A stretch of DNA of 64,000 nucleotides from a virus. Both the position numbers and the translations under genes were made by a program. Under the pieces are notes generated by a model that was not told where the DNA came from, did no database searches, and saw only the letters and a program-made list of their open reading frames with translations. The DNA lies in IMG/VR virus record IMGVR_UViG_3300037247_001890, positions 62,001-126,000 of that record. The stretch is one strand, 5' to 3'. Positions 5,329-23,290 of the stretch are shown in pieces; the stretch's first letter is position 1; each line of letters opens with the position of its first letter.

Positions 5329-8300
5329 TTAATAAGTATATCTGGGATCCTTAGCAAATTCCAAACCATACATATATGCTGGGAGTGGATTGTGACCATG
5401 TATATTTGATGCCATTCTAGTAGATGCCATATCTTTGATAGTGTTTTTTAAATGAACATTAGACAATCTATCTAACCAATCTTGCCCGTCGTCGGTAAGC
5501 ATCTCTATTGATTTGAAATATTCGTTGAATTGTGCAGGTGTTTTATTATCTCTGATCAATGCTTTATTTTTTTTCTTGATGTAGCTCGCTGATATTTTGT
5601 CTCCTATAAGCAAATCTGTATCCCCAGGATCTAAAATTTCAGCATTGTCTGTCACACCACGAATTGCTGTTTCAAAAGTTTTTTGGAAAAATTTATTTTC
5701 ATAAATATTATCCAGTTCTTTAACCATTTCTCGTTGGGCATATTTAAAACTCTTTAATTCAGCTAACTCTTGTGGCTTAATAACTCCTGTTGATATTTTG
5801 TCACCTTTAATTACTGATTGATACCTTTTTACTGTGGGTTCTAAATTTAATGGAACATAATGTGTTATTCCATTTATGAGTATATCTTTTCCACCAATAG
5901 GACTTTCTTTTATACTTTCAATTTGACCGTCAGTTTGTGCCAAGGTTGCTTTATTTGGCACAGTTTCAGGAACTTTGAATATTTGTTCTAATCTTTTAAA
6001 ACCGGCTAAAGCACTTCCACCTGAATCGACTGCCCCGCCTGTATGAAAAGTACGCATTGTAAGTTGAGTACTTCTTTCTGATATTGCTTGCCCATCTAAA
6101 ACCCCAACATTGGTACCAATAGGTGCAAAATCGCCACCTGGCATCAAACCATAGCATTTTTGACAAACACCCTGTGGAGTTTCACATGTCAAAGGACTTC
6201 TGACCACCACAATATTCATTTTAGCTTTTTTTAGCTTCTGTTGAATGTCTAGAGTTATAAGTTGTGCTGCTTCTACAATACCTTCTATATCGAGAGCAGA
6301 TGTGCGATCAAGAATATTTTTATCTGTAATATCAAATTCTATACCATCATTAGTGCCGCAATCTTCTTCTATTACTAATAATTTCCTTGTATTTGCAAGA
6401 AGTCTTTTATTCAATTCACCCGATTCTTGTGTGTTAACTGCACGATCAATAGTACCTTTTCGTACCCCATAAATACTGTTCCAATAATCAAAACTGTCCA
6501 AACCCTCACCATAACTTTTTGTTATAGGAATTGGTATTTCGTTTCCTTTAGTATCTTGAAGAATTCCAGGCATTCCTATCATTTGAATGACGCCTTCTTC
6601 ACTTTTAAGTGCACCTGATTTTAGCCATTCATAAAATTTGTTGGAATCTGAATATTTTTTATAAAGTTCTTTTTTTAATTCCACCTTAGCATTTTTATAA
6701 GCTTCGATTTTTTTCTCGTCAGACGAGTTTGGACCTAGTGTTGATTTCCATTTTTCTAGTATGTTTTCTCTTATAGAATGATCTACCTGCAAATCATTGA
6801 TGGAGACAGTACTCCCGCGAAGATGACCATAACGATTGCCAAGATCTTTTAATCCTGAAATAACCTGGTCAAAGTTTTCTGGAGTTTCATATGCTATTTT
6901 TTCTAATATAGAATTCACTTTTCTACTATCAAATAAGTTATCATAATCTCGAAATTGTTTTGGCAATATAGAATTCACTAGTTGAATACCTATAGTTGTT
7001 TTTTTACCATTTAAACTGAAAACATCTGTCATGCCAATACCAGCATTTTCTGCATCTACTACAGTCTTAAATCTTTTTTTGGTATCTTTACCAGGAACAG
7101 TTAAATAATATAAGCCTAGTTGATAATCTTTACTTATTGCGTGTACTACGGAGTTATCACCAGCTTTAAATACATTTTTAGATGGTAGCATACCCCATGC
7201 CTCATCTACAGCTTCATTTGTTACGGGAACATGGACGGCCATAGCATCGCCATCATAATCCAAATTAAAACCCGCATTGATTAATGGATTTGTTTTAATA
7301 TCTTTACCATCTACTAATATGGGCTTGAAGGCTTGTATTCCGTGTTTATGTAGAGTTGGTGCCCTGTTTAGCAATACGGGACGATTTTCCATTACTTTTA
7401 AGAGTGCTTTTCTTGAACCTATACCATTATCTTTTATATTTTCTAGAGCTTCCAAAGGTTTAAATCCCATTTGAAGCATTTCTTTGATAATAAAAGGTCT
7501 GTAAATAACTTTTGCCATTTCTACGGGAATTCCGGCTTGGTCCAGACCCAATGATGGGTCTACAGTAACAGTAGATCTTCCAGACACATCTTGCCTCTTA
7601 GTCCATACACTTCTTTGTGCAAAACCTTCTTTTGGAACAGATCCTGCAATTGTTTTTACTATACCTGCACTTCTTTTCATTTGTTGATGAAGTGGTTCTT
7701 GTAATCCAACAGCTTCTTTCAAAATACGGTACATATCTTTTCTAGCGGTTCTAGAGAGTTCTTCATCGAATCCCAAATCTTTATTTGTTTTTATGGCGTA
7801 TGCTGTTTGTGCAATTCTAGTGTAATGATGATTAATAGGACTTACTTGTAAATCTCCTGACGGTAATGGGTAAATGGGTCTAAATTTTGCTGGCATTACA
7901 GGAAATTTACTTATCATCAAATCAGTAGGTTTAAAACCAAAAGTTTTTAATGCTTCAAGATGCTTATACTTTTTGTTCAATAGATTACGTTTTGATTTTG
8001 GAGCTTCTTTTAATTCTGCTTTTGTTTTTTTAATTTCGCTTTTCAGATTTATTTCGTTTAATTTTTTTTGTATTAACTTATTACCAGTGACGCCATCCTC
8101 TGAATACGTTTCATTCATTATTTCATCAAATTTTGGACGGGTTAATCCTGTTATTTTTATTATAGCATCCTCAAATATTGGATGTGGCATTTTGGTGTTT
8201 AAATTAATATGTGACCACTTGCTGCCTTGCATACCTCCTACGACATCGGGATCGAACAAACCACCTTTGATTGGTGCTAGATTTTTACCACGTAATACAT

Positions 8301-11300
8301 CCCTGGCGTCTTTTATTTCCCCACCAGACAGTTTAGCAAGCTGCTTATCAGTAAATGGTGATGTAAGTAGATAATTACCGTTTTTAGTTACGTTTACACC
8401 AGCATTTTGTAAATGAGCTACAAGCTTATCAAATACAAAATTTGTTTTAGGAGTTGGCAATGGAAGTCCAACTTGTAATGCTTGCCATATTTCGTCATTC
8501 TTTTGACCTTTTATCAATGTTGCATCACGTAGATTTTTTGTAGCTCCATGTGCTATCATAGCATACATTGTCATTGGATCAATACTTTGACCACCAGTTT
8601 TTCCGGCTGCAGGCTGTAAATTCAAATCATACGAACTACGTTCTCGGGCTTTGTGTTTTTTTTCAACATCATGCATTAAACGTAAGATATATTGATTACC
8701 CGTGAAGATTTTATTTTCGAATGGTTTCCCATCTTTTCCGTCAAAAAGCTGTTCTTCTACCTCAATTTTCTCTTGTTTTAATTTAGCAGTTATATCGGCT
8801 AAAGAATTCTCTCCACTAAAATTTTTTACTATATATTTTTTACCAACTTTTTTGGCCCATTTACCAGCAGCAGTTTCAAGCAACTGACTGGGATTAATAC
8901 GGCCGGGCACACCGGCTGGGCTCATAATAAGATCTATACGTTTTCCGTCTTTATTATGTGGAGCATCACTATTAGGAATTATTTTTGTGATAATACCTTT
9001 ATTACCATATCTTCCAGATATTTTATCACCGACTACCATTGGATTTTCAACGACAATCCAGATATTTATACTTTTTCCTACACTTCTGACATATTTTACT
9101 ACACCTGTTTTATCTTGTGGCCACTCTAAACTTTTGTCGATGTGAGCAAGAAATGATGCTTTACCCATCTTTTTTACCATCATTTCAGTTAAAGTCATAT
9201 CACGTGGTTCCATATAAGAAATGAGGATATCACCTGATTCAACTTTTTCGCCTTCCTTTATAATTCCGTTTTCATCTAATTTAGAGAAATTTTTAGGGGT
9301 CAATTTATCAGGAAATATAATTCTAAATTTAGTTTTATCAGTCATACCATTTTTTGCTTGATACAAACTTTTTTTGACCATACTTGAAGAAGTGAATTTC
9401 TTAGCAAATGATTCAGTAACTACCACGCCATCTTCGAAATTAAAACCTTTCCATGGCATGTATGCCACATTGACATTTGATCCAACAGCCAGAATTGAGT
9501 TTCTTGAAAAATTATGATCAGCTAGGACTTGCCCCTTTGTAACTTTGTCCCCAACTTTTACCGAAGGTGTGGAGTGTAAGTAGGAATTTTGATTCAAAGG
9601 AAAATAATCATATAAACCAATTTTGACACTTTTTCCATTATTATTTTTTAATACTATATAATCTTTATCTATATATGTTATTTCGCCTGCTTGTTCTGCG
9701 TATGGTTGTAAATAAGAACCTGTGATGCCTTCCCACGTATTTTTATCATTAAAATGTGATTGAACAAGGGGTTCTTCACGATTAACAAGACTAACGGCTT
9801 GTGTCAACATTCGGGATCCCATACTAGCTCTGTTACCTTGGGTATTGGCTAAAAATGGAACTAGGTTGGATGTATAAGAGTATATACTGGCAGGATCGAT
9901 TAAAAAATATTCTACTTCACTTGGTTTGAATAGGGTTTGTTTTCCCTGATAATAACCTTTTACTACTCTGCCTTTTGGTTTTATGATTCCATTTACTATT
10001 TTATACTGATCAGGAAAACCTAATTTTATATTCCACACTTCCGCAGCCATCTTATCTTCATAGGACTTTGCTAAATGTTTTTCATCAACACTGGCACCAC
10101 TTTTCAATAAAGGTGTTAAAATATTTTTTTTCTTTTTTATAACTTCTGTAGCCAGTGGAAGTGTGATACCTACTTTGAAACTATCTGGTGTTGCAATCGG
10201 ATCTAAAAAACCTATGTGTGATGGATGAAGGTCACGTGCTTCGTTGGTGATTGCGTGTCTACTTTGAATACCTCCTGTACCCATGATAGTAGTCTTACGC
10301 CATTCATTTAACATTTCTAGGGGATTAGTTTGCGGCGTAGTCGAAGATAAATCAGCCTGTGGTCCAACAAAGAAATTTCTTATAGCATCACCATAATCGC
10401 TTGAACTAATTATTTCTCTTAATTTGTCTTTATTTTCTGAACTTCTGGCAATTCTGGCCACTATTTTTGGTGTATTTTTTTCAAAATATGCATTAAGTAG
10501 ATCATCGACTCCATACAGATCTTTAAAAGTTAAAGAATCTCTTTGATCTGGCTCCTCTTGACCTCTTCTTACTTTCAGAATTTTCTCTGAGGTTGCTAAT
10601 AAGGCTTCAGGTGTTACGCTTTCAAAACTTTTACCAAGGGTTAATTTGGTTGTGAATGGGCTAACTTTAGTATTATCAAAATATTCTTTTAAACCTTCTG
10701 CGGCTTTGTCGTAAGAAACTTCTTGATGTGTCAATTGCTTATAAAGATCAATTACTATTCTTTCTTGTTTTCCTATGGAGGTTCCTACATTTAATCTATA
10801 AACCTCTTCTCCCCAAGCCTTTTTCATTTCATTATCAGAAATGCCAAGAGCTTTCAAAATACCATATAGCTCATAATGTTTATTTTTTCTAGTAAGGAAA
10901 AAAATTCTTTTTTCTGGATCTAAATCCATTTCAAAGTTATAACCCTTTTCCAAATTAAATTGAGATACTATTTGTCCATTGTTTTTTACTCTTGTATAAA
11001 TTCCAGGTTTTAAGCGAAATTGATTCATTGTATGATATTCATTGCCATCTATGATAGTAGAAAATCTATTAGTCATCATTGGTATCGAACCAATTTTTAA
11101 TCTCGCAGAATCCAGAGTTTTGCCAGTCTCATTATCTATTAAACGCATAGTTGCATGTACAGGATAATCCCATGACTTGCCTGCTAGTTTTGCTTTTTTT
11201 TGATCTGGAAAATCGTCGGGAGTTATAGACTTATCAGCTACTTCTAGACTTTCTAATTCTATGGTTTTTTTGGAACCTTTAATTGGAAACTGAGATTTGA

Positions 11301-11376
11301 TCGAATTAGTAATAGAATTTCTAATTTCTTCATTTCTAATTTTAATGCTAAAAGCGTCTCTTACGCTATTTGCCAT
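5329..11376 (-). CDS. Fused beta-beta-prime DNA-directed RNA polymerase (2015 aa)
   Basis: This one polypeptide carries both large subunits of a multisubunit RNA polymerase. The beta half (about residues 1-1005) shows the protrusion (IDGNEYHTMNQFRLKPG), the fork region HPSHIGFLDPIATPDS (about 380-395), MPWKGFNFEDG, and catalytic VGDKISGRYGNKG (about 780) with both lysines. The beta-prime half shows PVMPAKFRPIYPL, VSGRSTVTVDP, RPVLLNRAPTLH and the catalytic NLDYDGD (about 1370), which keeps all three aspartates. It also has a trigger-loop segment GVRKG and the second zinc site CETPQGVCQKCYG (about 1730). It is far shorter than bacterial beta plus beta-prime (about 2750 residues): the join is direct, and the N-terminal beta-prime zinc finger is gone. 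No alpha or omega gene is visible in the window. Confidence 0.96.
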   Translation of the reverse strand: MANSVRDAFSIKIRNEEIRNSITNSIKSQFPIKGSKKTIELESLEVADKSITPDDFPDQKKAKLAGKSWDYPVHATMRLIDNETGKTLDSARLKIGSIPMMTNRFSTIIDGNEYHTMNQFRLKPGIYTRVKNNGQIVSQFNLEKGYNFEMDLDPEKRIFFLTRKNKHYELYGILKALGISDNEMKKAWGEEVYRLNVGTSIGKQERIVIDLYKQLTHQEVSYDKAAEGLKEYFDNTKVSPFTTKLTLGKSFESVTPEALLATSEKILKVRRGQEEPDQRDSLTFKDLYGVDDLLNAYFEKNTPKIVARIARSSENKDKLREIISSSDYGDAIRNFFVGPQADLSSTTPQTNPLEMLNEWRKTTIMGTGGIQSRHAITNEARDLHPSHIGFLDPIATPDSFKVGITLPLATEVIKKKKNILTPLLKSGASVDEKHLAKSYEDKMAAEVWNIKLGFPDQYKIVNGIIKPKGRVVKGYYQGKQTLFKPSEVEYFLIDPASIYSYTSNLVPFLANTQGNRASMGSRMLTQAVSLVNREEPLVQSHFNDKNTWEGITGSYLQPYAEQAGEITYIDKDYIVLKNNNGKSVKIGLYDYFPLNQNSYLHSTPSVKVGDKVTKGQVLADHNFSRNSILAVGSNVNVAYMPWKGFNFEDGVVVTESFAKKFTSSSMVKKSLYQAKNGMTDKTKFRIIFPDKLTPKNFSKLDENGIIKEGEKVESGDILISYMEPRDMTLTEMMVKKMGKASFLAHIDKSLEWPQDKTGVVKYVRSVGKSINIWIVVENPMVVGDKISGRYGNKGIITKIIPNSDAPHNKDGKRIDLIMSPAGVPGRINPSQLLETAAGKWAKKVGKKYIVKNFSGENSLADITAKLKQEKIEVEEQLFDGKDGKPFENKIFTGNQYILRLMHDVEKKHKARERSSYDLNLQPAAGKTGGQSIDPMTMYAMIAHGATKNLRDATLIKGQKNDEIWQALQVGLPLPTPKTNFVFDKLVAHLQNAGVNVTKNGNYLLTSPFTDKQLAKLSGGEIKDARDVLRGKNLAPIKGGLFDPDVVGGMQGSKWSHINLNTKMPHPIFEDAIIKITGLTRPKFDEIMNETYSEDGVTGNKLIQKKLNEINLKSEIKKTKAELKEAPKSKRNLLNKKYKHLEALKTFGFKPTDLMISKFPVMPAKFRPIYPLPSGDLQVSPINHHYTRIAQTAYAIKTNKDLGFDEELSRTARKDMYRILKEAVGLQEPLHQQMKRSAGIVKTIAGSVPKEGFAQRSVWTKRQDVSGRSTVTVDPSLGLDQAGIPVEMAKVIYRPFIIKEMLQMGFKPLEALENIKDNGIGSRKALLKVMENRPVLLNRAPTLHKHGIQAFKPILVDGKDIKTNPLINAGFNLDYDGDAMAVHVPVTNEAVDEAWGMLPSKNVFKAGDNSVVHAISKDYQLGLYYLTVPGKDTKKRFKTVVDAENAGIGMTDVFSLNGKKTTIGIQLVNSILPKQFRDYDNLFDSRKVNSILEKIAYETPENFDQVISGLKDLGNRYGHLRGSTVSINDLQVDHSIRENILEKWKSTLGPNSSDEKKIEAYKNAKVELKKELYKKYSDSNKFYEWLKSGALKSEEGVIQMIGMPGILQDTKGNEIPIPITKSYGEGLDSFDYWNSIYGVRKGTIDRAVNTQESGELNKRLLANTRKLLVIEEDCGTNDGIEFDITDKNILDRTSALDIEGIVEAAQLITLDIQQKLKKAKMNIVVVRSPLTCETPQGVCQKCYGLMPGGDFAPIGTNVGVLDGQAISERSTQLTMRTFHTGGAVDSGGSALAGFKRLEQIFKVPETVPNKATLAQTDGQIESIKESPIGGKDILINGITHYVPLNLEPTVKRYQSVIKGDKISTGVIKPQELAELKSFKYAQREMVKELDNIYENKFFQKTFETAIRGVTDNAEILDPGDTDLLIGDKISASYIKKKNKALIRDNKTPAQFNEYFKSIEMLTDDGQDWLDRLSNVHLKNTIKDMASTRMASNIHGHNPLPAYMYGLEFAKDPRYTY

Positions 11377-11424
11377 CTACATTTATCCTTATTTTTTGGA
11401 ATAAGATGATTGTGTACTATTCTA

Positions 11425-11453
11425 AATATACTGAAGAAGGTACATGAAATCAA
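11425..11453 (-). promoter_or_regulatory. Sigma70-like promoter for the RNA polymerase gene
   Basis: Read on the minus strand there is TTGATT (11448-11453), a 17-base spacer and TATATT (11425-11430). This would place the start of transcription about 40 bases before the ATG at 11376. An AAGGA ribosome site follows near 11386-11392. The spacing and hexamers are close to the host sigma70 consensus, which suits early expression by the host enzyme. Confidence 0.5.
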
Positions 11454-11504
11454 GTATTATCTACTTTTACCCTCCTAACAATGGAATATATTGCCTAACA
11501 AAAT

Positions 11505-11715: not shown

Positions 11716-12312
11716 ATGTTATGTAGCTATTGTCAGCAAGTAGAGCTGACTCTCGAAGAAGCCAAGTCCGCAAAAAAAGGATGCATGTTTTGTGCAATAG
11801 ACACATCAATAACAATGGCGCGGGCAACTGGACTTAAGGTAGCAATGCCAAAACCGATCGAATATGGACGTACACAACAAGAATATGACGACTATATGCG
11901 AAGAATAAGTAAAAAGGCATCTCATACCGATTTGAAACAAAAGATGCAAGATGCAGCTGATACTCTTGAGCCACCCGGCCAAGATACAGACACAGATACA
12001 AAACAAAAACAATACGTACAAAGACCCGGACAACCATATGACTTTTCGAATGATCACATAGGGCAATTATTAAAAGATTTTGATCCAAATGATCCTCCTC
12101 ACGAATATGAAGAAATGCTAAGTGATGATTTTTTTATTAAAGCATCAGTGCCAGGTCCATTAAATGATAAAATGGATGCAATGATCGCTAAAGAGATCAA
12201 AAGATTATTTACAACAATTGTTTATTTAAAAACTCAAGGATCAGCGTGGGAAAGATATTTCCGTGATCCTGAGGAACCAACTGGACCACAAGGCGTGTTT
12301 CCACCGACGTAA
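11716..12312 (+). CDS. Hypothetical protein with N-terminal CxxC zinc motif, MoxR-operon partner
   Basis: The 198-residue protein opens with CSYC near residues 3-6 and CMFC near 23-26, a probable treble-clef or ribbon-type zinc site. The centre is acidic, Thr/Asp/Gln-rich and likely disordered, and the C-terminal third is helical. A TAGGAG ribosome site precedes the ATG. It lies 11 bases before the MoxR ATPase gene and so is probably a co-expressed third component of that pair. No function can be assigned from sequence alone. Confidence 0.65.
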   Translation: MLCSYCQQVELTLEEAKSAKKGCMFCAIDTSITMARATGLKVAMPKPIEYGRTQQEYDDYMRRISKKASHTDLKQKMQDAADTLEPPGQDTDTDTKQKQYVQRPGQPYDFSNDHIGQLLKDFDPNDPPHEYEEMLSDDFFIKASVPGPLNDKMDAMIAKEIKRLFTTIVYLKTQGSAWERYFRDPEEPTGPQGVFPPT

Positions 12313-12323
12313 AGGAGAATTAA

Positions 12324-13481
12324 TTGAACGAATTACGCGACAGAATTCTGTCTGTTCGCCAAGAACTCAACGGAATCACCGTTGAAAGAACCGAAGAAAC
12401 ACACGGGCTTATTACTGCTGTATTAACTAACCTTAATATTTTATTTTTAGGTCCTCCTGGGGTAGCAAAATCATTGCTTGCTTCCAGATTTATCAAACAC
12501 ATACAGGGTGGAAAATATTTCCATCGACTTTTGACAGCTTATTCTACTCCAGAAGAGTTGTTTGGACCGTTCTCTATGAGAGAGCTTAAGAATGATAAAT
12601 ACTTAAGGGTAATTGAAGGAATGCTTCCTGAAGCTCACATTGCTGTAATCGACGAGGTTTTTAAAGCAAACGCAGGTATTTTAAACAGTTTGCTTGAATT
12701 ATTGAATGAGCGAGAATTTTCGAATGGCAGGGAAAGAATCAAAGTTCCTTTGCTTACAGTGATTGGCGCGTCGAATGAAATACCAGAAAATGATGAGGGT
12801 TTAGGAGCAGTATACGACAGATTTCATTTGAAGTATCTTACCGAACCTATTCGTGAGCCAGGAAATTTCATGAAGATGCTCGAAATGCCTAATCCTGAAG
12901 ATTTACCTGATCCTGAAGTTACCATAACATTAGATGAACTAGCAGAAACACGAAAATTGGTAAAACAGGTGGCAATTCCAGATGGTGTAATACAAAAATT
13001 GACAAAACTTCGCCATGAACTTACGATTGGCGGCTATATAGTCACTGACAGAACATATAAAGCTTCCATGAAGGTATTAAAAGCAGAAGCATGGCTAAAA
13101 GGTAGAGATATCATTGAAGAAGATGACATGGACGTTTTACGTCATATGTTCTGGGCTGATCCTACGAAAGCACGCGGCGTATATCTGAAAATTTTGGAAA
13201 TGGTTAATCCTGAGAAAAACCTTATCTTGGAAAAATACGAAGAATGTATGCGTATTACGAAAGATGTTTTTGCAGAAAAAGATCCAAAAGTTCAGATGGA
13301 AAATGGTATCGAAGCTGCATCAAAACTAAAGCAGGCTAAATCCGATATCAATAAGCTGATGAAAGAAATGATGAAGAAACAAAAAAACGTCGATGAAATA
13401 AAAACTATGCTTGTCGATATAGATGAGCAAGTTAAAAAGATTTTCGTTGACGCATGCAATATTAAATTGGATGAGGTTTAA
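12324..13481 (+). CDS. MoxR-family AAA+ ATPase (RavA-like)
   Basis: This AAA+ ATPase is expected to form a hexamer that remodels a partner using ATP. Walker A is GPPGVAKS (residues 43-50), Walker B is AVIDE (107-111), sensor 1 is GASN (148-151), and an arginine finger candidate is R166 in YDRFHLKYL. The C-terminal helical lid and a coiled coil (about 300-360) follow. The start is TTG at 12324, supported by AAAGGAG 7 bases upstream. The downstream VWA gene overlaps it (TAATG), the classic MoxR-VWA arrangement as in RavA-ViaA. The phage role is unknown; assembly, metal loading or conflict functions are all possible. Confidence 0.9.
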   Translation: MNELRDRILSVRQELNGITVERTEETHGLITAVLTNLNILFLGPPGVAKSLLASRFIKHIQGGKYFHRLLTAYSTPEELFGPFSMRELKNDKYLRVIEGMLPEAHIAVIDEVFKANAGILNSLLELLNEREFSNGRERIKVPLLTVIGASNEIPENDEGLGAVYDRFHLKYLTEPIREPGNFMKMLEMPNPEDLPDPEVTITLDELAETRKLVKQVAIPDGVIQKLTKLRHELTIGGYIVTDRTYKASMKVLKAEAWLKGRDIIEEDDMDVLRHMFWADPTKARGVYLKILEMVNPEKNLILEKYEECMRITKDVFAEKDPKVQMENGIEAASKLKQAKSDINKLMKEMMKKQKNVDEIKTMLVDIDEQVKKIFVDACNIKLDEV

Positions 13482-15049
13482 TGTCTTACAGACAAATAGG
13501 GAAGACTCCCCTTAGTAATAGAAAGAAAGTCACAGACGACATTCATAATTCTAAGCATTCGATAAAGCATGATAAGTTTGATTTGGAAGCTTTTGAGAGA
13601 ACATTAACACAAAGCAAAGTACTTACAGAAAACCGGCGTGCTGGTAAAAAAGAATACAAAGAATTCGCAGAACTCTTACAAGACACATTCTCAGCCTTAT
13701 TCAAATATAATCCGGAACTTTTAAAAGATTACATGATGAATCCGGAATTTTTGCTAAATCGAGAAATAATGAAACAAGTGTTTGAAGCTCCAAAATACAA
13801 GGAGCTTCGAGCACTGACAAGACTTGATGAAGTAAATGCAACTATAGGTACTGAGATTCTTTCTGATGAATTAAAAGAATTTGTAAAGCAGATAAAAGAA
13901 CAACAAGCAGCTTTACAAAAACTTATGGAAGCGATGGAGAAAGAAGCACAAGCACAAGCTGCTGAAAAGAAAGACGAAGAAGGAGAAGGGGAAGAGGTTG
14001 GATCAGCTAAGATATCTGAGCGTTTGTCTCTTAAAGAAGCAAAAAAGAGATTGGAAGAAGCGCGAAAAGATTTCCAAGATTCAGTAGAGAAAAAAGAATT
14101 TCAGCAAAATGTGCATGGTCTGGTAAGTCAAGCACAAAATGTTACTCAAGAAACGAATGACTTTATTGAGGCGTGGGGTTTGGGCAGTGATAATAACTAT
14201 AATAAAAGATCTTATAAAGAAAAGATGGATCTTTTGCACAGATTGCGTAATTCTCCCAAACTTCGTATGATAGCCAAGTTGGCAGGCCGCTATAAAAAGA
14301 TAGCGATGCAACGGCAACACCAAAAAATAAAGAAGGGAACAAACGAGATTTATTCCATTAAACAAGGGAAAGATCTTGGCAAAGTACTACCTTCTGAGTT
14401 AATGAAGCTCAGTGATCCTGTGACTGAAACATTATTTTTTAAAGATTACGTTGAAGGAAAAATTCTTCAATATGAAACAAGAAGTAAAGCTAAGCAAGTC
14501 AAAGGCCCCATTGTAGTAGCAATGGATGAATCATATTCAATGGATGGTCAACCAGAAATATGGGCTAAGGCCGTAGCATTGGGTATACTTGAAATAGCGA
14601 TTGCACAAAAGCGAGATTTCGCAGCAATTCACTTTTCAGGTGATGACAACCCAAAGAGACTGAAAGTAGATTACTTCTACAAAGAACAACCATACAACAT
14701 CGAAAAGATTCTCGAGTTCGCCGAATATTTTGACGGCGGGGGAACTTTTTTCGAAGCACCTCTTGCGAGAGCAAGGACGATAATCAGCGAACACGCGAAA
14801 TTTACGACCGCTGACTTGATATTTATTACGGATGGTGAAGCCCCTATTGGGGATAAATTCCGTGATAAATTCAATGAATGGGTGAAAGAGAGTAAAGTTT
14901 CCATATATTCGATCTTGATCAACCAGGGAGGATATTCTTCGACAGCATCACTTAAAGAATTCACAAAGAAAGAGAATATCTTCAAATTAACAGAGTTATC
15001 GCAAGACGATCAAGATACTCTCGCGATCACCATATTCGATTCGATATAA
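13481..15049 (+). CDS. VWA-domain protein, ViaA-like partner of MoxR
   Basis: The 522-residue protein has a long helical, charged N-terminal part (coiled coil about residues 130-230, very rich in E, K and A). A C-terminal von Willebrand factor A domain follows, starting near residue 340. The MIDAS motif DESYS (DxSxS) at about 348-352 is intact, with a later FITDGEAP strand that fits the metal-site aspartate. The domain order and size match ViaA-type proteins coupled to RavA. Translation is coupled to the MoxR gene through a TAATG overlap with GAGGT before it. It is followed by the structured RNA and reverse transcriptase. Confidence 0.88.
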   Translation: MSYRQIGKTPLSNRKKVTDDIHNSKHSIKHDKFDLEAFERTLTQSKVLTENRRAGKKEYKEFAELLQDTFSALFKYNPELLKDYMMNPEFLLNREIMKQVFEAPKYKELRALTRLDEVNATIGTEILSDELKEFVKQIKEQQAALQKLMEAMEKEAQAQAAEKKDEEGEGEEVGSAKISERLSLKEAKKRLEEARKDFQDSVEKKEFQQNVHGLVSQAQNVTQETNDFIEAWGLGSDNNYNKRSYKEKMDLLHRLRNSPKLRMIAKLAGRYKKIAMQRQHQKIKKGTNEIYSIKQGKDLGKVLPSELMKLSDPVTETLFFKDYVEGKILQYETRSKAKQVKGPIVVAMDESYSMDGQPEIWAKAVALGILEIAIAQKRDFAAIHFSGDDNPKRLKVDYFYKEQPYNIEKILEFAEYFDGGGTFFEAPLARARTIISEHAKFTTADLIFITDGEAPIGDKFRDKFNEWVKESKVSIYSILINQGGYSSTASLKEFTKKENIFKLTELSQDDQDTLAITIFDSI

Positions 15050-15485: not shown

Positions 15486-16415
15486 ATGACTATTTACGAA
15501 TTATTAAACGAAGATCCGGATACGGTAAAGCATATTATAGAAAATATTGATAGATATTATCTGTCTTACGGAATCAAAAAAAGACGCGGACGATCTCGAA
15601 GAATAGATGCGCCCCAAGACAAACTAATCGAAATACAAAGAAAAATATTATATAAAATTTTATATAGGTATAAACCCCATCCAATTGCACATGGCTTTGT
15701 GAAAAAAAGGGGACCAAAAACAAATGCAGAAGAACATGTAGGCGCTGATCTTCTTATTACAATAGATATAAAGAATTTTTTCAATTCAATTACTGAGAAA
15801 CAAGTTTATTCTACTTTTGAGTATCTTTTTGATAGAAGATTGCCGTACGAAAAAGCAACTTCTAACGATATTAATATCATAGTCAAACTATTGACATATA
15901 GAGGCCGAGTACCACAGGGAGCAATTACAAGTCCAGCAGTCTCTAACTTATTCATGCTTCCATATGATAAAAAATTAAAAAAACTCCAACCAAAATATAA
16001 AATTAAAATAACACGATATTGTGATGATATTGCAATAAGCTCAAAAAAGAGTAAGGGATTAAAAGTACATGATATTCTAGATGATGTCAGAGAGATTTTA
16101 AGACCTGCAGGATTAAGAATGAATAAAACAAAAACAAAAGTAAGAAAACGATATCACAGAATGAAAGTTACAGGTATAATAGTAAACGAAAAGACTAATA
16201 TACCAAGAGAGAATTGGAGAAATTTCAGAGCATGCCTACACAATATCAAAGTAAAACAACCTATGGAAGAAGTTTCAGAGCTAGATCTGCAAAAGATGAG
16301 AGGGTACATAGAGTGGGTCAAGGTAATAAACCCTATACGTGGGAAACAGTTCTTGACAGAATTCGAGGAAATCTTAAATATGCAAAAGAAATTTTTCACA
16401 ATCATATTGACGTAA
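15486..16415 (+). CDS. Retron-type reverse transcriptase
   Basis: This RNA-directed DNA polymerase of 309 residues has the normal retron RT length. Motifs in order are HGFVKKRGPKTNAEEH, with the retron NAxxH box at 80-84, and TIDIKNFFNSI with the first catalytic aspartate D94. Next come PQGAITSP at 143-150 and the YCDD active site at 178-181. VTGIIVNEKTNIPR holds the retron VTG box at 228-230. It lacks the SQ signature of diversity-generating retroelement RTs and the maturase domain of group II introns. The ATG has only a weak A-rich leader. It sits between a structured RNA and an overlapping ORF, as expected for a retron with an accessory gene. Confidence 0.9.
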   Translation: MTIYELLNEDPDTVKHIIENIDRYYLSYGIKKRRGRSRRIDAPQDKLIEIQRKILYKILYRYKPHPIAHGFVKKRGPKTNAEEHVGADLLITIDIKNFFNSITEKQVYSTFEYLFDRRLPYEKATSNDINIIVKLLTYRGRVPQGAITSPAVSNLFMLPYDKKLKKLQPKYKIKITRYCDDIAISSKKSKGLKVHDILDDVREILRPAGLRMNKTKTKVRKRYHRMKVTGIIVNEKTNIPRENWRNFRACLHNIKVKQPMEEVSELDLQKMRGYIEWVKVINPIRGKQFLTEFEEILNMQKKFFTIILT

Positions 16416-17774: not shown

Positions 17775-17806
17775 AAAGGGGCAATATATTTGCCCCTTTA
17801 TTTTTA
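17775..17806 (+). terminator. Rho-independent terminator
   Basis: AAAGGGGCAA (17775-17784) and TTGCCCCTTT (17790-17799) form a perfect 10-bp stem with a TATAT loop, followed by ATTTTTAT. It separates the GP88 gene from the ligase gene. Confidence 0.85.
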
Positions 17807-17819
17807 TATAGGAGGTACA

Positions 17820-19130
17820 ATGCATTTAGAACGACAATTATATCGTGAGTCTCGAACAGGAGCTATACTCTCGTGGAGAATAACAGTAGAAGACAGCGAT
17901 AACAAAATCAAAAGAACATTTGGACACAAAGAAGGCAAACAGCAGCACACAGAAGAAATTGTTGAGGGAAAAAACATTGGAAAATCCAACGAAACCACTC
18001 CTCATGAGCAAGCTGTAAAAGAAGCACAATCTATCATAGTTAAAAAACTAAAAGAAGGTTTCAGAGACAAGCTTACGACGCAAATTTTTACATTTGACCC
18101 CCTCCCAGAAGGATTTACTCCTAGTAAACCAATTTCGGCACCGCCAGAGGGAACATCAATGAGTGTGGGGTTGGAAAAGTTTTACGCTGAAAGGAAATAC
18201 AATGGAGTCAACCTACTTTTGGTTGTGGATCTTAAGAATGCGAAGCACCTATACACCAGAGGCATCGAAGAAATAACGCACTTAATTGCAGACATACCAG
18301 AGATAAAAAAACTGTGTGAATACGAAGTTCCGGCCGGCAGTATCACCAGTTTTGAATTTATTTACTTTAACTCTGATGGTGTGGAAATGCCCAAGGATTT
18401 GAGAGCATTTACTGAAGTTAGATCCACCAAGGAAAAAACAGAAGCAAGATATCTTCACCTAAAAGAAGTCGGCGGACACCTGGAAATTAAAATTTTTGAT
18501 ATGCTTTTCTATGACAAAACGGATATTACAAAAACAGATTTTTCTGATAGAAGAGCGATTATTAAGAAGACATATTACGATAAAGATGCCACATATGAAC
18601 CATGGTCTATACAGTTGCTGACAAAAGAACACGTTGACATGGCACTTGAACAAGGATGGGAAGGTTTTGTCTTAAGACATTTGACAGGTGAGTCCAGTTA
18701 TATTGAGTATACGATGAACGGAAAAGCATATCGAAAGGGCTCCTGGAAATTAAAATTCCAATGGACGGAAGATTTCTATATTTTTGAGTTCATGACTAGC
18801 AATGCTGGAAAATTAAAAGGACTTCCTGCAAGATTCCATCTTGGAAAACTAGATGCTTTTGGAGAAAGGGTTGAGTGCGGGTGGTGTGGTCCGGGAACGC
18901 TAGGAATGGATGGTGTGAAAGTAATGGCAAAGAAATTGGGTTGGAGCAGTGTGGAAAAACTTCCATACAAAACTGCTTTTCCAGTTTCGAATCCACTCAC
19001 AGTAGAGATAAAATACCGTTCCAGGCAGCCAGATAGTAATGCACTGGAGCATCCAGTAATATTGGAAACACGTGAGGATAAGCCATGGAAAGAATGCCTG
19101 ATAAGCGATGAGCCTGTGCTATTCGAATGA
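17820..19130 (+). CDS. ATP-dependent DNA ligase with WGR-like N-terminal domain
   Basis: This enzyme is predicted to seal DNA nicks using ATP. An N-terminal WGR-like domain (about residues 1-80, with KNIGKSNETTP) precedes the nucleotidyltransferase domain. The adenylated lysine is K126 in AERKYNG. Other core motifs are SFEFIYF, EGFVLRH and the paired lysines of SWKLKF. An OB-like C-terminal region contains CGWCGPGT. The catalytic motif is KxNG in place of the usual KxDG, a notable substitution. I chose the ATG at 17820 because AGGAGGT precedes it; a longer in-frame start at 17790 lies inside the terminator. Confidence 0.88.
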   Translation: MHLERQLYRESRTGAILSWRITVEDSDNKIKRTFGHKEGKQQHTEEIVEGKNIGKSNETTPHEQAVKEAQSIIVKKLKEGFRDKLTTQIFTFDPLPEGFTPSKPISAPPEGTSMSVGLEKFYAERKYNGVNLLLVVDLKNAKHLYTRGIEEITHLIADIPEIKKLCEYEVPAGSITSFEFIYFNSDGVEMPKDLRAFTEVRSTKEKTEARYLHLKEVGGHLEIKIFDMLFYDKTDITKTDFSDRRAIIKKTYYDKDATYEPWSIQLLTKEHVDMALEQGWEGFVLRHLTGESSYIEYTMNGKAYRKGSWKLKFQWTEDFYIFEFMTSNAGKLKGLPARFHLGKLDAFGERVECGWCGPGTLGMDGVKVMAKKLGWSSVEKLPYKTAFPVSNPLTVEIKYRSRQPDSNALEHPVILETREDKPWKECLISDEPVLFE

Positions 19131-21212: not shown

Positions 21213-21392
21213 TTACATGGTTGGCACGACCTCTGCCAGGGGATCTTTTACAATTCCTTCTTCTTTCTCCATAGATATTCTTCGTATCCAGGTATGACCT
21301 TCCGGTAGGATGTCTCTATTGTGAAGTGGTAATCTATAGATAGCCTCGCATTTCTCACATTTATAAATCTCATAGGTGTTATATTTTTTCAT
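21213..21392 (-). CDS. Small CxxC protein at the end of the head operon (59 aa)
   Basis: The ATG at 21392 overlaps the portal stop (TAATG), and the frame runs to 21213. The 59-residue product contains YKCEKCEAIY near residues 10-19, half of a zinc ribbon, followed by a short basic part (HTWIRRIS) and an acidic tail. A homodimer could share one zinc ion. No family is recognised. It is the last gene of the long minus-strand transcript. Confidence 0.55.
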   Translation of the reverse strand: MKKYNTYEIYKCEKCEAIYRLPLHNRDILPEGHTWIRRISMEKEEGIVKDPLAEVVPTM

Positions 21393-23290
21393 TACTTCGG
21401 ACCTGCTTTTGGATGTCCGGCTTTTTTCTTTGCACCCTCGTCTTTTGTTCCATCCGCTTTCGTGCCAGCCTTTTTACTCGTTTGTGATTTTTTTGCAGGT
21501 GTAGTAGGTTCTTCTGGTTCTTCTGGCATTGCCATCTCTTGCAGCATAATTTTCTCTTCTATTCTTTTAGCTACAAGTGCTGCATGATAAGGCATCTTAC
21601 TTTCTAATTTAGTTAAGGCTGCTACTTGTCCCGCAGGATCCATGAGCATTATTTCTTCTGCATATTTATCTATCGCGGCGGATAAGTCCATTTCACTAGG
21701 ATCGCCTTGAGTTTCTTCTGTAAGCTCTTCTTTAAATTTAGCTTCTCTAATTCTTGCTTGCTCATCTATAGCTGCTTGTTGGGCACGAACTTGATATTTA
21801 GCAGATATTTCGAGAGCTTGTCCTTGAGCTTCCGCTTCCTTCATAGCAGTATCTAAAGCCAAGCTAACCTCAAATTCTTTAGACATCTTAATGTTCTCTT
21901 TTTCTTCTTCGAAGGAAATACCAAACTCTTCAAGAACTTTGGATAGACTTATTTTGTTTGTAGCCGCTAATTCAAGTATCAGTCGTTTAGTTTCTGAATC
22001 GTCGGCCATTCTCAGACGTTTGAAGTGAACTGTTACAGAAGGAAATTTTATTAATTCAGTTGCCTTCCTAATAATAAAATGATTAACAAAATCTTCTAGT
22101 TGTCCTCTGTATGTCAAGAAATGATTCTCTACTATACGCAAAGAAATAGATGAACCTGTCCATGTTGCCCCACCTTTTATAAATTCTATAGGAACTCCCA
22201 AAGAATTTATAATAGTTTCCTCTAAAAATTTTAGCTCGGCAGTAACAAGCAACATCTTAGCATCCCCACCAATATTTTCTGACCCTATGGCTATAGGGAA
22301 GATACCAATGTGATTAGGATCTATTTTCCACGCTCTTACATCTTCTTCTAATTTGCTTCGCCATGTACGAAGGTTCATTTGAGAAAACGGATCTATTGCG
22401 TTGGTAGGAGCAGGAAACAAAGTTCTGAATGGAATAATGTGCTCTGCGGCGATTGCCTCATTACCACGTCTAAGAGTCTGCATGTACCAGATGTCTGCCA
22501 GAGCACTTAAAATAATAGGTTTTCCCCAACCCATGTCTTCTTCTGCTAAAGTATTTCTTTTGAAATGGTACAGATTACCAGAATCTAATTCTATTTTTTT
22601 CTTTTCTCTTAGAGCAGTAATAAATAATTCGGGCGTAGTTTTTAATGTCTTTTTATTGCCTTTAATTATTTTGGCTTTTATTGAGGCTGGCATGGAGTAA
22701 TAATAAATGGTATCGCCAGTTAAAGGATCGTATTCAAGGTCTATATTTTCAGGACTCCATCTAACGAACCTCAAATAGTGAGGATTTCCCAGATATCTGT
22801 CATCTATGTCATAAATCCCGTGTGCATTGCATTTGGGACATTGACCATGGTATTGGAAATTTCGCCATTGGTATTTTACCTCGTCTATTGGAATCGATTG
22901 CTTACAGGATTTGCATTTTAAATATCTGTCGAACTTCATGTTCGCTGAAATGAAACTATTACCGTAAGTAAAATAATCCAGACCCACCTGAATTAGCATG
23001 GCCTTTATTTTTATATCAAAATTAAAAAATCTCTTATAAAGCTTTCTAACTTTGAGGTCTGTATCTCTGTCAAATAAAATATCTGTAATCGGGTATTCAG
23101 TTAGTTTAGTTATAACAGAATTAATAAAACCGTTTCTGTAAAAAAAGGTCCGGCAATGCTTAAACAGCATCTTGATTGATCTAGGCATGTAGGACCTAGA
23201 AATGTCGAACCAGGGAGATGGATAGTCAAGCCTAGTCAGGTTCTTACTTTTAACATAATATTTATCGCTGTACGGAGGAATATTGACCAT
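21392..23290 (-). CDS. Portal protein
   Basis: This is the probable head-tail portal subunit that forms the dodecameric DNA gate. The N-terminal two-thirds carry portal-like features: FFYRNGFINSVITKL, LDYFTYGNSFISANM (about 104-118), LRFVRWSPENIDLEYD, and a LGVPIEFIKGGATWTGSS loop before a long helical stem. An insertion with C126, C129, C151 and C154 (CxxC-x21-CxxC) looks like a zinc ribbon, which is not typical of portals. The C-terminal tail (about 585-632) is Lys/Ala/Pro-rich and disordered. The length of 632 residues is normal for large phages. No terminase gene is in the window. Confidence 0.8.
   Translation of the reverse strand: MVNIPPYSDKYYVKSKNLTRLDYPSPWFDISRSYMPRSIKMLFKHCRTFFYRNGFINSVITKLTEYPITDILFDRDTDLKVRKLYKRFFNFDIKIKAMLIQVGLDYFTYGNSFISANMKFDRYLKCKSCKQSIPIDEVKYQWRNFQYHGQCPKCNAHGIYDIDDRYLGNPHYLRFVRWSPENIDLEYDPLTGDTIYYYSMPASIKAKIIKGNKKTLKTTPELFITALREKKKIELDSGNLYHFKRNTLAEEDMGWGKPIILSALADIWYMQTLRRGNEAIAAEHIIPFRTLFPAPTNAIDPFSQMNLRTWRSKLEEDVRAWKIDPNHIGIFPIAIGSENIGGDAKMLLVTAELKFLEETIINSLGVPIEFIKGGATWTGSSISLRIVENHFLTYRGQLEDFVNHFIIRKATELIKFPSVTVHFKRLRMADDSETKRLILELAATNKISLSKVLEEFGISFEEEKENIKMSKEFEVSLALDTAMKEAEAQGQALEISAKYQVRAQQAAIDEQARIREAKFKEELTEETQGDPSEMDLSAAIDKYAEEIMLMDPAGQVAALTKLESKMPYHAALVAKRIEEKIMLQEMAMPEEPEEPTTPAKKSQTSKKAGTKADGTKDEGAKKKAGHPKAGPK

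What the first reader, a model, noticed from the sequence alone, without database searches (positions are those of the whole stretch)
5329..11376. Single-chain phage RNA polymerase: beta and beta-prime fused and the beta-prime N-terminal zinc finger lost
The beta C-terminal strands (about residue 1000) run straight into the beta-prime N-terminus (GGEIKDARD then GGLFDPDVVG near 1013-1045) with no linker domain. Bacterial beta-prime has about 40 residues with four cysteines between G-L-F...F-G and M-G-H-I; here GGMQGSKW bridges directly to SHINL. All catalytic elements remain. Most phage multisubunit polymerases I know are split into several genes, so a compact full fusion, with no alpha in view, is unusual and may be the best minimal two-barrel bacterial-like core.
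Basis: partly seen in the sequence, partly recalled or inferred. Interest (0 to 1): 0.85.

Follow-up and report, generated by a model that had tools for sequence, protein, structure and literature searches.

The report
One-piece bacterial-type phage RNA polymerase
This bacterial virus carries its own copying enzyme (RNA polymerase) in which the two big halves that bacteria make separately are joined into one protein and one zinc-binding knob is missing; it belongs to a large, little-described family of such viral enzymes that could show how few parts a bacterial-type RNA polymerase really needs.

Summary
Window 5329-11376 (-) is one intact 2015-aa gene with a complete beta-like half, a six-residue bridge and a complete beta-prime-like half. 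The N-terminal beta-prime zinc domain (about 37 aa, four Cys) is cleanly deleted. The catalytic Asp triad, both beta lysines, trigger-loop His and second zinc site remain. AlphaFold models of both halves are confident (pLDDT 88) and match bacterial beta and beta-prime. No alpha or omega was found.

It is not a one-off. IMG/VR holds at least 521 relatives; of those read, 72 loci encode a whole single-chain enzyme and 65 encode beta plus the beta-prime N-half fused, with the beta-prime C-half separate. The second form includes Salmonella phage Arash and Vibrio phage D69. All 72 aligned members share the zinc-finger-less junction. Trees place the family apart from bacteria, with one fusion and a later re-split nested inside (AU test p = 1e-5).

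The phage also carries a sigma-70 factor and a fixed-spacing promoter (TTGAY-N17-TAWATTTA), including upstream of this gene. Best reading: a phage-borne, alpha/omega-free, sigma-guided single-chain RNA polymerase.

Overlap with the published 'mReC' phage RNA polymerases could not be settled; I found no paper describing the single-chain form or the zinc-finger loss.

The parts
5329..11376 (-). single-chain beta-beta' RNA polymerase gene, 2015 aa
   Evidence: ORF; Pfam/NCBIfam; AlphaFold + Foldseek
8362..11376 (-). beta-like half, aa 1-1005
   Evidence: NCBIfam rpoB; Foldseek best match cyanobacterial beta 8gzh_C, E 6.9e-77, TMt 0.80
8317..8397 (-). fusion junction, aa 994-1020: two strands (994-999, 1002-1007) then helix 1010-1016
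   Evidence: both AlphaFold models confident here; alignment with bacterial subunits
8191..8271 (-). site of the deleted N-terminal beta' zinc-binding domain (aa 1036-1062, around GGLFDPDVVGGMQGSKWSHINL)
   Evidence: alignment with four-Cys bacterial ZBD; same deletion in all 72 aligned rows
5329..8361 (-). beta'-like half, aa 1006-2015
   Evidence: NCBIfam rpoC; Foldseek of the aa 816-2015 model matches bacterial beta', TM 0.77
8998..9024 (-). beta double-psi-barrel lysines K785 and K793 (GDKISGRYGNKG)
   Evidence: 61 of 61 family rows conserve both
7246..7266 (-). catalytic NLDYDGD motif (D1373, D1375, D1377)
   Evidence: 61 of 61 family rows conserve the three Asp
6562..6639 (-). bridge helix, aa 1580-1605
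   Evidence: aligned with bacterial bridge helix
6154..6360 (-). second beta' zinc site, C1673/C1731/C1738/C1741
   Evidence: invariant in the 37-row alignment A6; each Cys in 60 of 61 rows
5992..6090 (-). trigger loop (..TQLTMRTFHTGG.., H1778)
   Evidence: H1778 in 61 of 61 rows
11423..11454 (-). promoter CTTGATT-N17-TATATTTA, 46 bases upstream of the gene
   Evidence: pattern: 6 in window vs 0.41 expected, 0 of 100 shuffles; fixed spacing and same motif upstream of RNAP in four relatives
12324..13481 (+). RavA-like MoxR ATPase, conserved neighbour (10 loci of the window's clade)
13481..15049 (+). ViaA-like VWA protein, conserved neighbour (10 loci)
15486..16415 (+). retron-type reverse transcriptase (YCDD), conserved neighbour in the clade
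21392..23290 (-). portal protein; its homologue lies in the RNAP flanks of 124 family loci but is 10 kb away here

Best explanation
The gene encodes the phage's own DNA-dependent RNA polymerase, a bacterial-type two-barrel core made as one chain. The beta C-terminal strand runs through a short hairpin into the beta-prime N-terminus, so the covalent link does the assembly work that the alpha dimer and omega do in bacteria. Promoter recognition is most likely by the phage-encoded sigma-70 factor (regions 1.2, 2 and 4; genome 146883-147665), binding the retained beta-prime clamp coiled coil and the beta flap and directing the core to TTGAY-N17-TAWATTTA promoters. Shown by sequence: the single chain, intact active site, zinc-domain loss, absence of detectable alpha/omega, presence of a sigma-70 gene, and a shared promoter. 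Inferred: catalytic activity, alpha-independence, sigma partnership, and which genes it transcribes. Evolution: a bacterial-type polymerase was captured early; beta and beta-prime fused once with loss of the zinc domain; one descendant clade later split beta-prime again after the catalytic barrel.
For: Intact ORF and catalytic residues conserved in 61/61 relatives. Confident models matching bacterial beta and beta'. Alpha 0/33 and omega 0/33 large relatives' records, with cellular controls ringing. Sigma-70 region 2 in 19/33, including 4/4 of the window's clade; this phage's sigma matches RpoS/RpoD models at 1e-61 to 1e-53 over most of its length. Promoter enriched, sharp at one spacing (11 hits vs 0-5) and found upstream of RNAP in four relatives. 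Family separate from bacteria; fully fused forms paraphyletic, split forms nested (AU p 1.1e-5).
Against: No expression or activity data. Alpha and omega were sought by family HMMs only, and the record is a linear contig of unknown completeness. Sigma was not found in 13 of 16 records of the other fully fused clades, so sigma-dependence on a phage sigma cannot hold across the whole family in this form. The promoter looks sigma-70-like and could equally serve host RNA polymerase. The root of the fusion rests partly on L073, a long branch.
Confidence: 0.7

Rival explanations
1. The family, or part of it, is already published as the 'mReC' phage RNA polymerases (Weinheimer and Aylward 2020), and only the single-chain architecture went unremarked.
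For: Their filter (COG0085 and COG0086 matches, 800 aa or more, NADxDGD) would accept many members: 97 of 162 family motif instances are NAD[FY]DGD. They mined IMG/VR, where this family is large.
Against: All mReC capsids found were PF07068; that family is absent from 33 of 33 records here but present in separate-subunit phages RHph_TM3_3_6 and Carin-5. The paper speaks of beta and beta' subunits, mentions fusion only for crAss phages and never zinc or alpha. The window's own motif (NLDYDGD) fails their filter.
Confidence: 0.4
2. It is a virion-packaged polymerase, injected to transcribe early genes, rather than one made after infection.
For: In 124 family loci the portal gene lies in the RNAP flanks, and in Arash the order is portal, small gene, fused RNAP: a structural-gene neighbourhood. 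Virion single-chain RNAPs exist in crAss-like phages and P23-45 (PMC10770324).
Against: In the window's own clade the gene has left the portal and has its own sigma-70-like promoter. A promoter-dependent enzyme with a sigma partner does not need packaging.
Confidence: 0.2
3. The chain is not self-sufficient: it borrows host alpha and omega (or unrecognised phage versions) and works as a modified host-type core.
For: The fold is fully bacterial-like; in bacteria alpha is needed for assembly of beta and beta' (own knowledge).
Against: The beta' C-terminal GRLIPAGTG motif is replaced by AYMYGLEF; no alpha or omega in 33 large phage records; jumbo-phage RNAPs already work without alpha and omega (PMC7598289).
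Confidence: 0.15
4. It is host rpoBC carried on a contaminating bacterial contig, or a recent capture.
For: Sequence is bacterial-type rather than archaeal: rpoB 402 vs 141 bits.
Against: Viral record with portal, tail sheath, DNA polymerase and 27 tRNA genes; only about 26% identity to the best cellular hits; separate from all bacteria sampled with maximal support.
Confidence: 0.02

Closest known systems
Salmonella phage Arash gp206 + gp216; Vibrio phages D69, D181, D148 (GenBank records)
   Same: Homologous, 31-33% identical, same direct beta-beta' junction without the N-terminal zinc domain; no alpha or omega and a sigma-70 gene in the two records searched (Arash, D69)
   Different: beta' is split after the catalytic barrel (about 1525 + 606 aa); annotated only as 'RNA polymerase subunit beta' or 'hypothetical'; no paper found
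mReC phage multi-subunit RNAPs (PMC7481178)
   Same: Phage RNAPs recognisable by both bacterial COGs and branching apart from cellular enzymes
   Different: Described as beta and beta' subunits, capsid family PF07068; single-chain form and zinc-domain loss not reported; membership overlap unresolved
Jumbo-phage (phiKZ/AR9) nvRNAP and vRNAP (PMC7598289, PMC7824862)
   Same: Phage two-barrel RNAPs without alpha/omega; the re-split clade here breaks beta' at a similar place, after the catalytic barrel
   Different: Those are cut into 4-5 polypeptides, far more diverged, and lack recognisable sigma factors
crAss phi14:2 gp66, P23-45 gp64/gp96, YonO, QDE-1 (PMC10770324)
   Same: Two catalytic barrels in one chain
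   Different: That clade has almost no sequence similarity to cellular RNAP outside DxDxD; here the whole chain aligns to bacterial beta and beta'
Yeast virus-like element RNAP K2ORF6p/K2ORF7p (PMC6211774)
   Same: beta fused to part of beta', with beta' C-terminus separate: the same layout as the re-split clade
   Different: Yeast cytoplasmic element, presumed related to the vaccinia RNAP; the paper called the fusion unique in 2018
Fused rpoBC of Helicobacteraceae and Wolbachia (cited in PMC7483510; NCBIfam PRK09603, PRK14844)
   Same: beta and beta' in one chain
   Different: Model lengths 2839-2890 aa; cellular enzymes used with alpha and omega (own knowledge)

Membership tests
Two-barrel (cellular-type) RNA polymerase, bacterial branch | DxDGD triad in the beta' barrel and two Lys in the beta barrel | tested here: met
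   61/61 rows
Two-barrel (cellular-type) RNA polymerase, bacterial branch | Whole-chain similarity and fold of bacterial beta and beta' | tested here: met
Two-barrel (cellular-type) RNA polymerase, bacterial branch | beta' N-terminal four-Cys zinc domain | tested here: not met
   deleted here and in all aligned relatives; note that a Saccharibacteria beta' keeps the length but not the Cys
Bacterial RNAP holoenzyme | alpha dimer and omega | tested here: not met
   no PF01193 or PF01192 match in this record or 32 relatives
mReC RNAPs | beta and beta' matches with NADxDGD | tested here: not met
   window has NLDYDGD; 97 of 162 family motif instances do fit
mReC RNAPs | PF07068 major capsid protein (all 8 mReC capsids found) | tested here: not met
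   0/33 records, T4 control positive; found in two separate-subunit phages
mReC RNAPs | Placement in the published mReC clade | not testable with these tools
   their sequences are in supplements not available here
Jumbo-phage nvRNAP/vRNAP | beta and beta' each split into two or more genes | tested here: not met
   single ORF
crAss/YonO/QDE-1 single-chain clade | No detectable similarity to rpoB/rpoC models beyond the catalytic motif | tested here: not met
   matches over both whole subunits
ZBD-less fused phage RNAP family (Arash, D69 and IMG/VR relatives) | beta' N-terminus joined to beta by the GGLFD..TGG..G.KWSH junction | tested here: met
ZBD-less fused phage RNAP family (Arash, D69 and IMG/VR relatives) | One clade apart from bacteria | tested here: met
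   100 support; the long-branched separate-subunit phage Carin-5 (L005) falls at its base beside L073; not rooted with archaea

The most novel reading that the evidence does not exclude
A large, undescribed phage lineage invented a single-chain, alpha- and omega-free bacterial-type RNA polymerase once. It dropped the N-terminal zinc domain, kept sigma-directed initiation with a phage sigma in several clades, and in one clade re-split the chain near the point where jumbo phages and yeast virus-like elements also split theirs. It would be a natural minimal bacterial core whose assembly needs no platform subunits.
Probability: 0.5. Interest if true: 0.78.

Novelty: new variant of a known kind. 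Interest (0 to 1): 0.62.

Why it matters
Jumbo-phage polymerases show that alpha and omega can be lost, but they are so diverged that they say little about the bacterial enzyme. This family still aligns end to end with bacterial beta and beta-prime, so it offers a nearly bacterial core stripped of assembly subunits and of the zinc knob where some antitermination factors act (own knowledge). It makes three questions directly testable: what alpha, omega and the N-terminal zinc domain are strictly needed for; whether one polypeptide can do sigma-dependent initiation; and in which direction polymerase genes fuse and split. A one-gene bacterial-type polymerase would also be a useful laboratory tool.

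Tried and rejected
Single-sequence scan of IMG/VR: no hits, because patterns were too specific; alignments solved it. Host rpoBC or contamination: rejected by gene content and trees. 'Bacteriophage sp.' MT836236 (L006), with separate beta and beta', first looked like a pre-fusion relative, but it keeps the zinc domain and falls inside bacteria, so it is probably bacterial DNA. Diversity-generating repeats near the reverse transcriptase: none found by blastn, and the protein is retron-type instead. A small Cys-rich neighbour (11716-12312) was considered as a stand-alone replacement for the lost zinc domain; rejected because a homologue was found in only one relative's flank. The promoter spacing test was made after seeing the motif; the independent support is the same motif upstream of RNAP in four relatives.
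Full report
What was checked. The window is bases 62001-126000 of a 169,274-base viral record. ORF 5329..11376(-) is a single 2015-aa reading frame. Pfam and NCBIfam place beta domains at about aa 120-1000 and beta-prime domains at about 1085-1970. Bacterial models score far above archaeal ones (rpoB 402 vs 141 bits, rpoC 501 vs 88), so this is a bacterial-type enzyme.

The junction. With bacterial rpoB and rpoC joined end to end for alignment, the bacterial beta C-terminus falls on aa 976-1000 and the bacterial beta-prime N-terminus on aa 1008-1041, with only about six residues between them. The stretch that in bacteria holds CxCGK..CxxC, about 37 residues, is absent: GLFDPDVVGGMQGSKWSHINL. 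The second zinc site (C1673, C1731, C1738, C1741) is kept. K785, K793, D1373, D1375, D1377 and H1778 are kept in 61 of 61 relatives. The beta-prime C-terminal GRLIPAGTG motif of bacteria is replaced by AYMYGLEF.

Structure. AlphaFold models of aa 1-1200 (pLDDT 87.7, pTM 0.75) and aa 816-2015 (pLDDT 87.7, pTM 0.84) overlap at the junction. Both are confident there (block means mostly above 87 for aa 996-1075) and show strands 994-999 and 1002-1007 followed by helix 1010-1016. Foldseek against the PDB returns bacterial beta (best 8gzh_C, E 6.9e-77) and bacterial beta-prime (TM 0.77). Against predicted viral structures the best matches to the aa 1-1200 model are giant-virus RNAP subunits at TM about 0.57, so this architecture is not represented in that library.

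Relatives. Four annotated phage records are direct relatives: Vibrio D69, D181 and D148 and Salmonella phage Arash. In Arash and D69 beta and the N-half of beta-prime are one gene of about 1525 aa and the C-half is another of about 606-610 aa; in D181 a homing endonuclease gene interrupts the fused gene. An alignment-based scan of IMG/VR with the shared part gave 79 loci. Reading the open frames: 72 loci hold a whole single-chain enzyme (1903-2276 aa, median about 2084), 65 hold the fused beta-beta'N form (55 of them with beta'C on the same locus), and 8 are cut once more at about aa 1090, inside beta-prime and after the junction. Some loci are near-copies of each other, so these are counts of loci, not of independent lineages. 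Several close relatives (L016, L178, L179, L181/L250) have in-frame TGA, in L016 at two positions where the window has Trp. All 72 rows of the first family alignment share the zinc-less junction. The best cellular hits in 84,980 genomes are ordinary separate rpoB/rpoC of Saccharibacteria and relatives at 25-27% identity.

Tree. FastTree on 77 rows and IQ-TREE (LG+C20+F+G4) on 38 and 24 rows separate the family from bacteria with full support. The split forms are one clade nested among fully fused forms. Forcing the fully fused rows into one clade is rejected (AU p 1.1e-5). The simplest history is one fusion with loss of the zinc domain, then one re-split. L073, a fully fused outlier, is a long branch, and no archaeal outgroup was available, so the depth of the split from bacteria is not resolved.

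Partners. Alpha (PF01193) and omega (PF01192) are absent from 33 of 33 records of this family, all over 100 kb, while the same searches ring in cellular controls. Sigma-70 region 2 occurs in 19 of 33: 4 of 4 in the window's clade, 12 of 12 in the split clade, and only 3 of 16 in the other fully fused clades. This phage's sigma is a 260-aa protein with regions 1.2, 2 and 4. The beta-prime coiled coil that binds sigma region 2 in bacteria aligns at aa 1180-1235.

Promoters. Upstream regions suggested CTTGAY-N17-TAWATTTA. The pattern occurs 6 times in the window against 0.41 expected, 0 of 100 shuffles reaching 6, and 3 times in the next 20 kb against 0.13. Genome-wide, TTG-N20-TAWATTTA has 11 hits at spacing 20 against 0-5 at other spacings; many lie 5-50 bases upstream of genes, among them this RNAP gene and the primase gene, and the same motif stands upstream of RNAP in L178, L179, L181 and L016. 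It is sigma-70-like, so it does not by itself say whether host or phage enzyme reads it.

Mechanism. Established: a complete, conserved active site in one chain, and loss of one zinc domain. Inferred: that the covalent link replaces the alpha/omega assembly platform, that the phage sigma directs the enzyme, and that it is made in the cell from its own promoter. Whether it is also packaged is open, since the portal gene lies in the RNAP flanks of 124 family loci and in Arash, though not here.

Known work. mReC (PMC7481178) is the closest published group. Its text mentions fusion only for crAss phages and does not mention zinc or alpha. Its capsid marker PF07068 is absent from 33 records here and present in separate-subunit phages, yet its sequence filter would have accepted many members of this family, so overlap is possible. 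Jumbo-phage RNAPs are split into four or five polypeptides and lack alpha and omega (PMC7598289). Yeast virus-like elements have a beta-beta'N fusion with a separate beta'C (PMC6211774), the same layout as the split clade. Helicobacteraceae and Wolbachia have fused rpoBC (PMC7483510). The P23-45 paper (PMC10770324) mentions, without detail in its main text, derivatives of cellular RNAPs with fused barrels. Ten literature searches found no description of this family's single-chain form; subscription papers and preprints are largely outside that library.

Verdict. It is a member of a broad, poorly described phage RNAP family rather than a singular case: a new variant of the bacterial-type two-barrel polymerase.

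Noticed in passing
window 15486-16415 (+): Retron-type reverse transcriptase (YCDD; retron_St85 model 9.9e-63, PADLOC RT_XIII 1.5e-71) with homologues in the RNAP flanks of 14 loci, including all members of the window's clade examined; its RNA and effector were not sought.
   Followed up: partly
window 12324-15049 (+): RavA-like MoxR ATPase and ViaA-like VWA protein, divergent from the RNAP gene and kept beside it in 10 clade loci.
   Followed up: partly
window 11423-11454 (-) and about ten other genome sites: Phage promoter TTGAY-N17-TAWATTTA with fixed spacing, upstream of RNAP, primase and other genes.
   Followed up: yes
L054, L061, L075, L078, L079, L017 (sites at window aa 398 and 786): Intein-like inserts of about 340-380 aa (Cys start, ..GN then Ser/Cys) at two fixed sites in the RNAP beta half of relatives.
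   Followed up: partly
L082, L066-L069 (site at window aa 580): Extra domains of 130-150 aa inserted in the beta half; the one in L082 reads by eye like a GNAT acetyltransferase (RRQGIARDLM).
   Followed up: no
L016, L178, L179, L181/L250: Close relatives with in-frame TGA codons in the RNAP gene (Trp at two positions in L016), suggesting hosts with TGA reassigned.
   Followed up: partly
L155 (Saccharibacteria rpoC): Saccharibacterial beta-prime keeps the length of both zinc regions but has lost the cysteines of both.
   Followed up: no
L004 4755-5372; L072 near 9491-10421: A homing endonuclease gene (Vibrio phage D181) sits in the RNAP gene at about window aa 509-516; L072 has a gene break at the same place.
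   Followed up: no
genome 37-57 kb (L010, L011): Cluster of 27 tRNA genes in the phage record.
   Followed up: no
window 17790-19130 (+) and L014 16555-17901 (-): DNA-ligase domains in two separate genes: adenylation domain in one, LigD_N plus ligase OB domain in the other.
   Followed up: no
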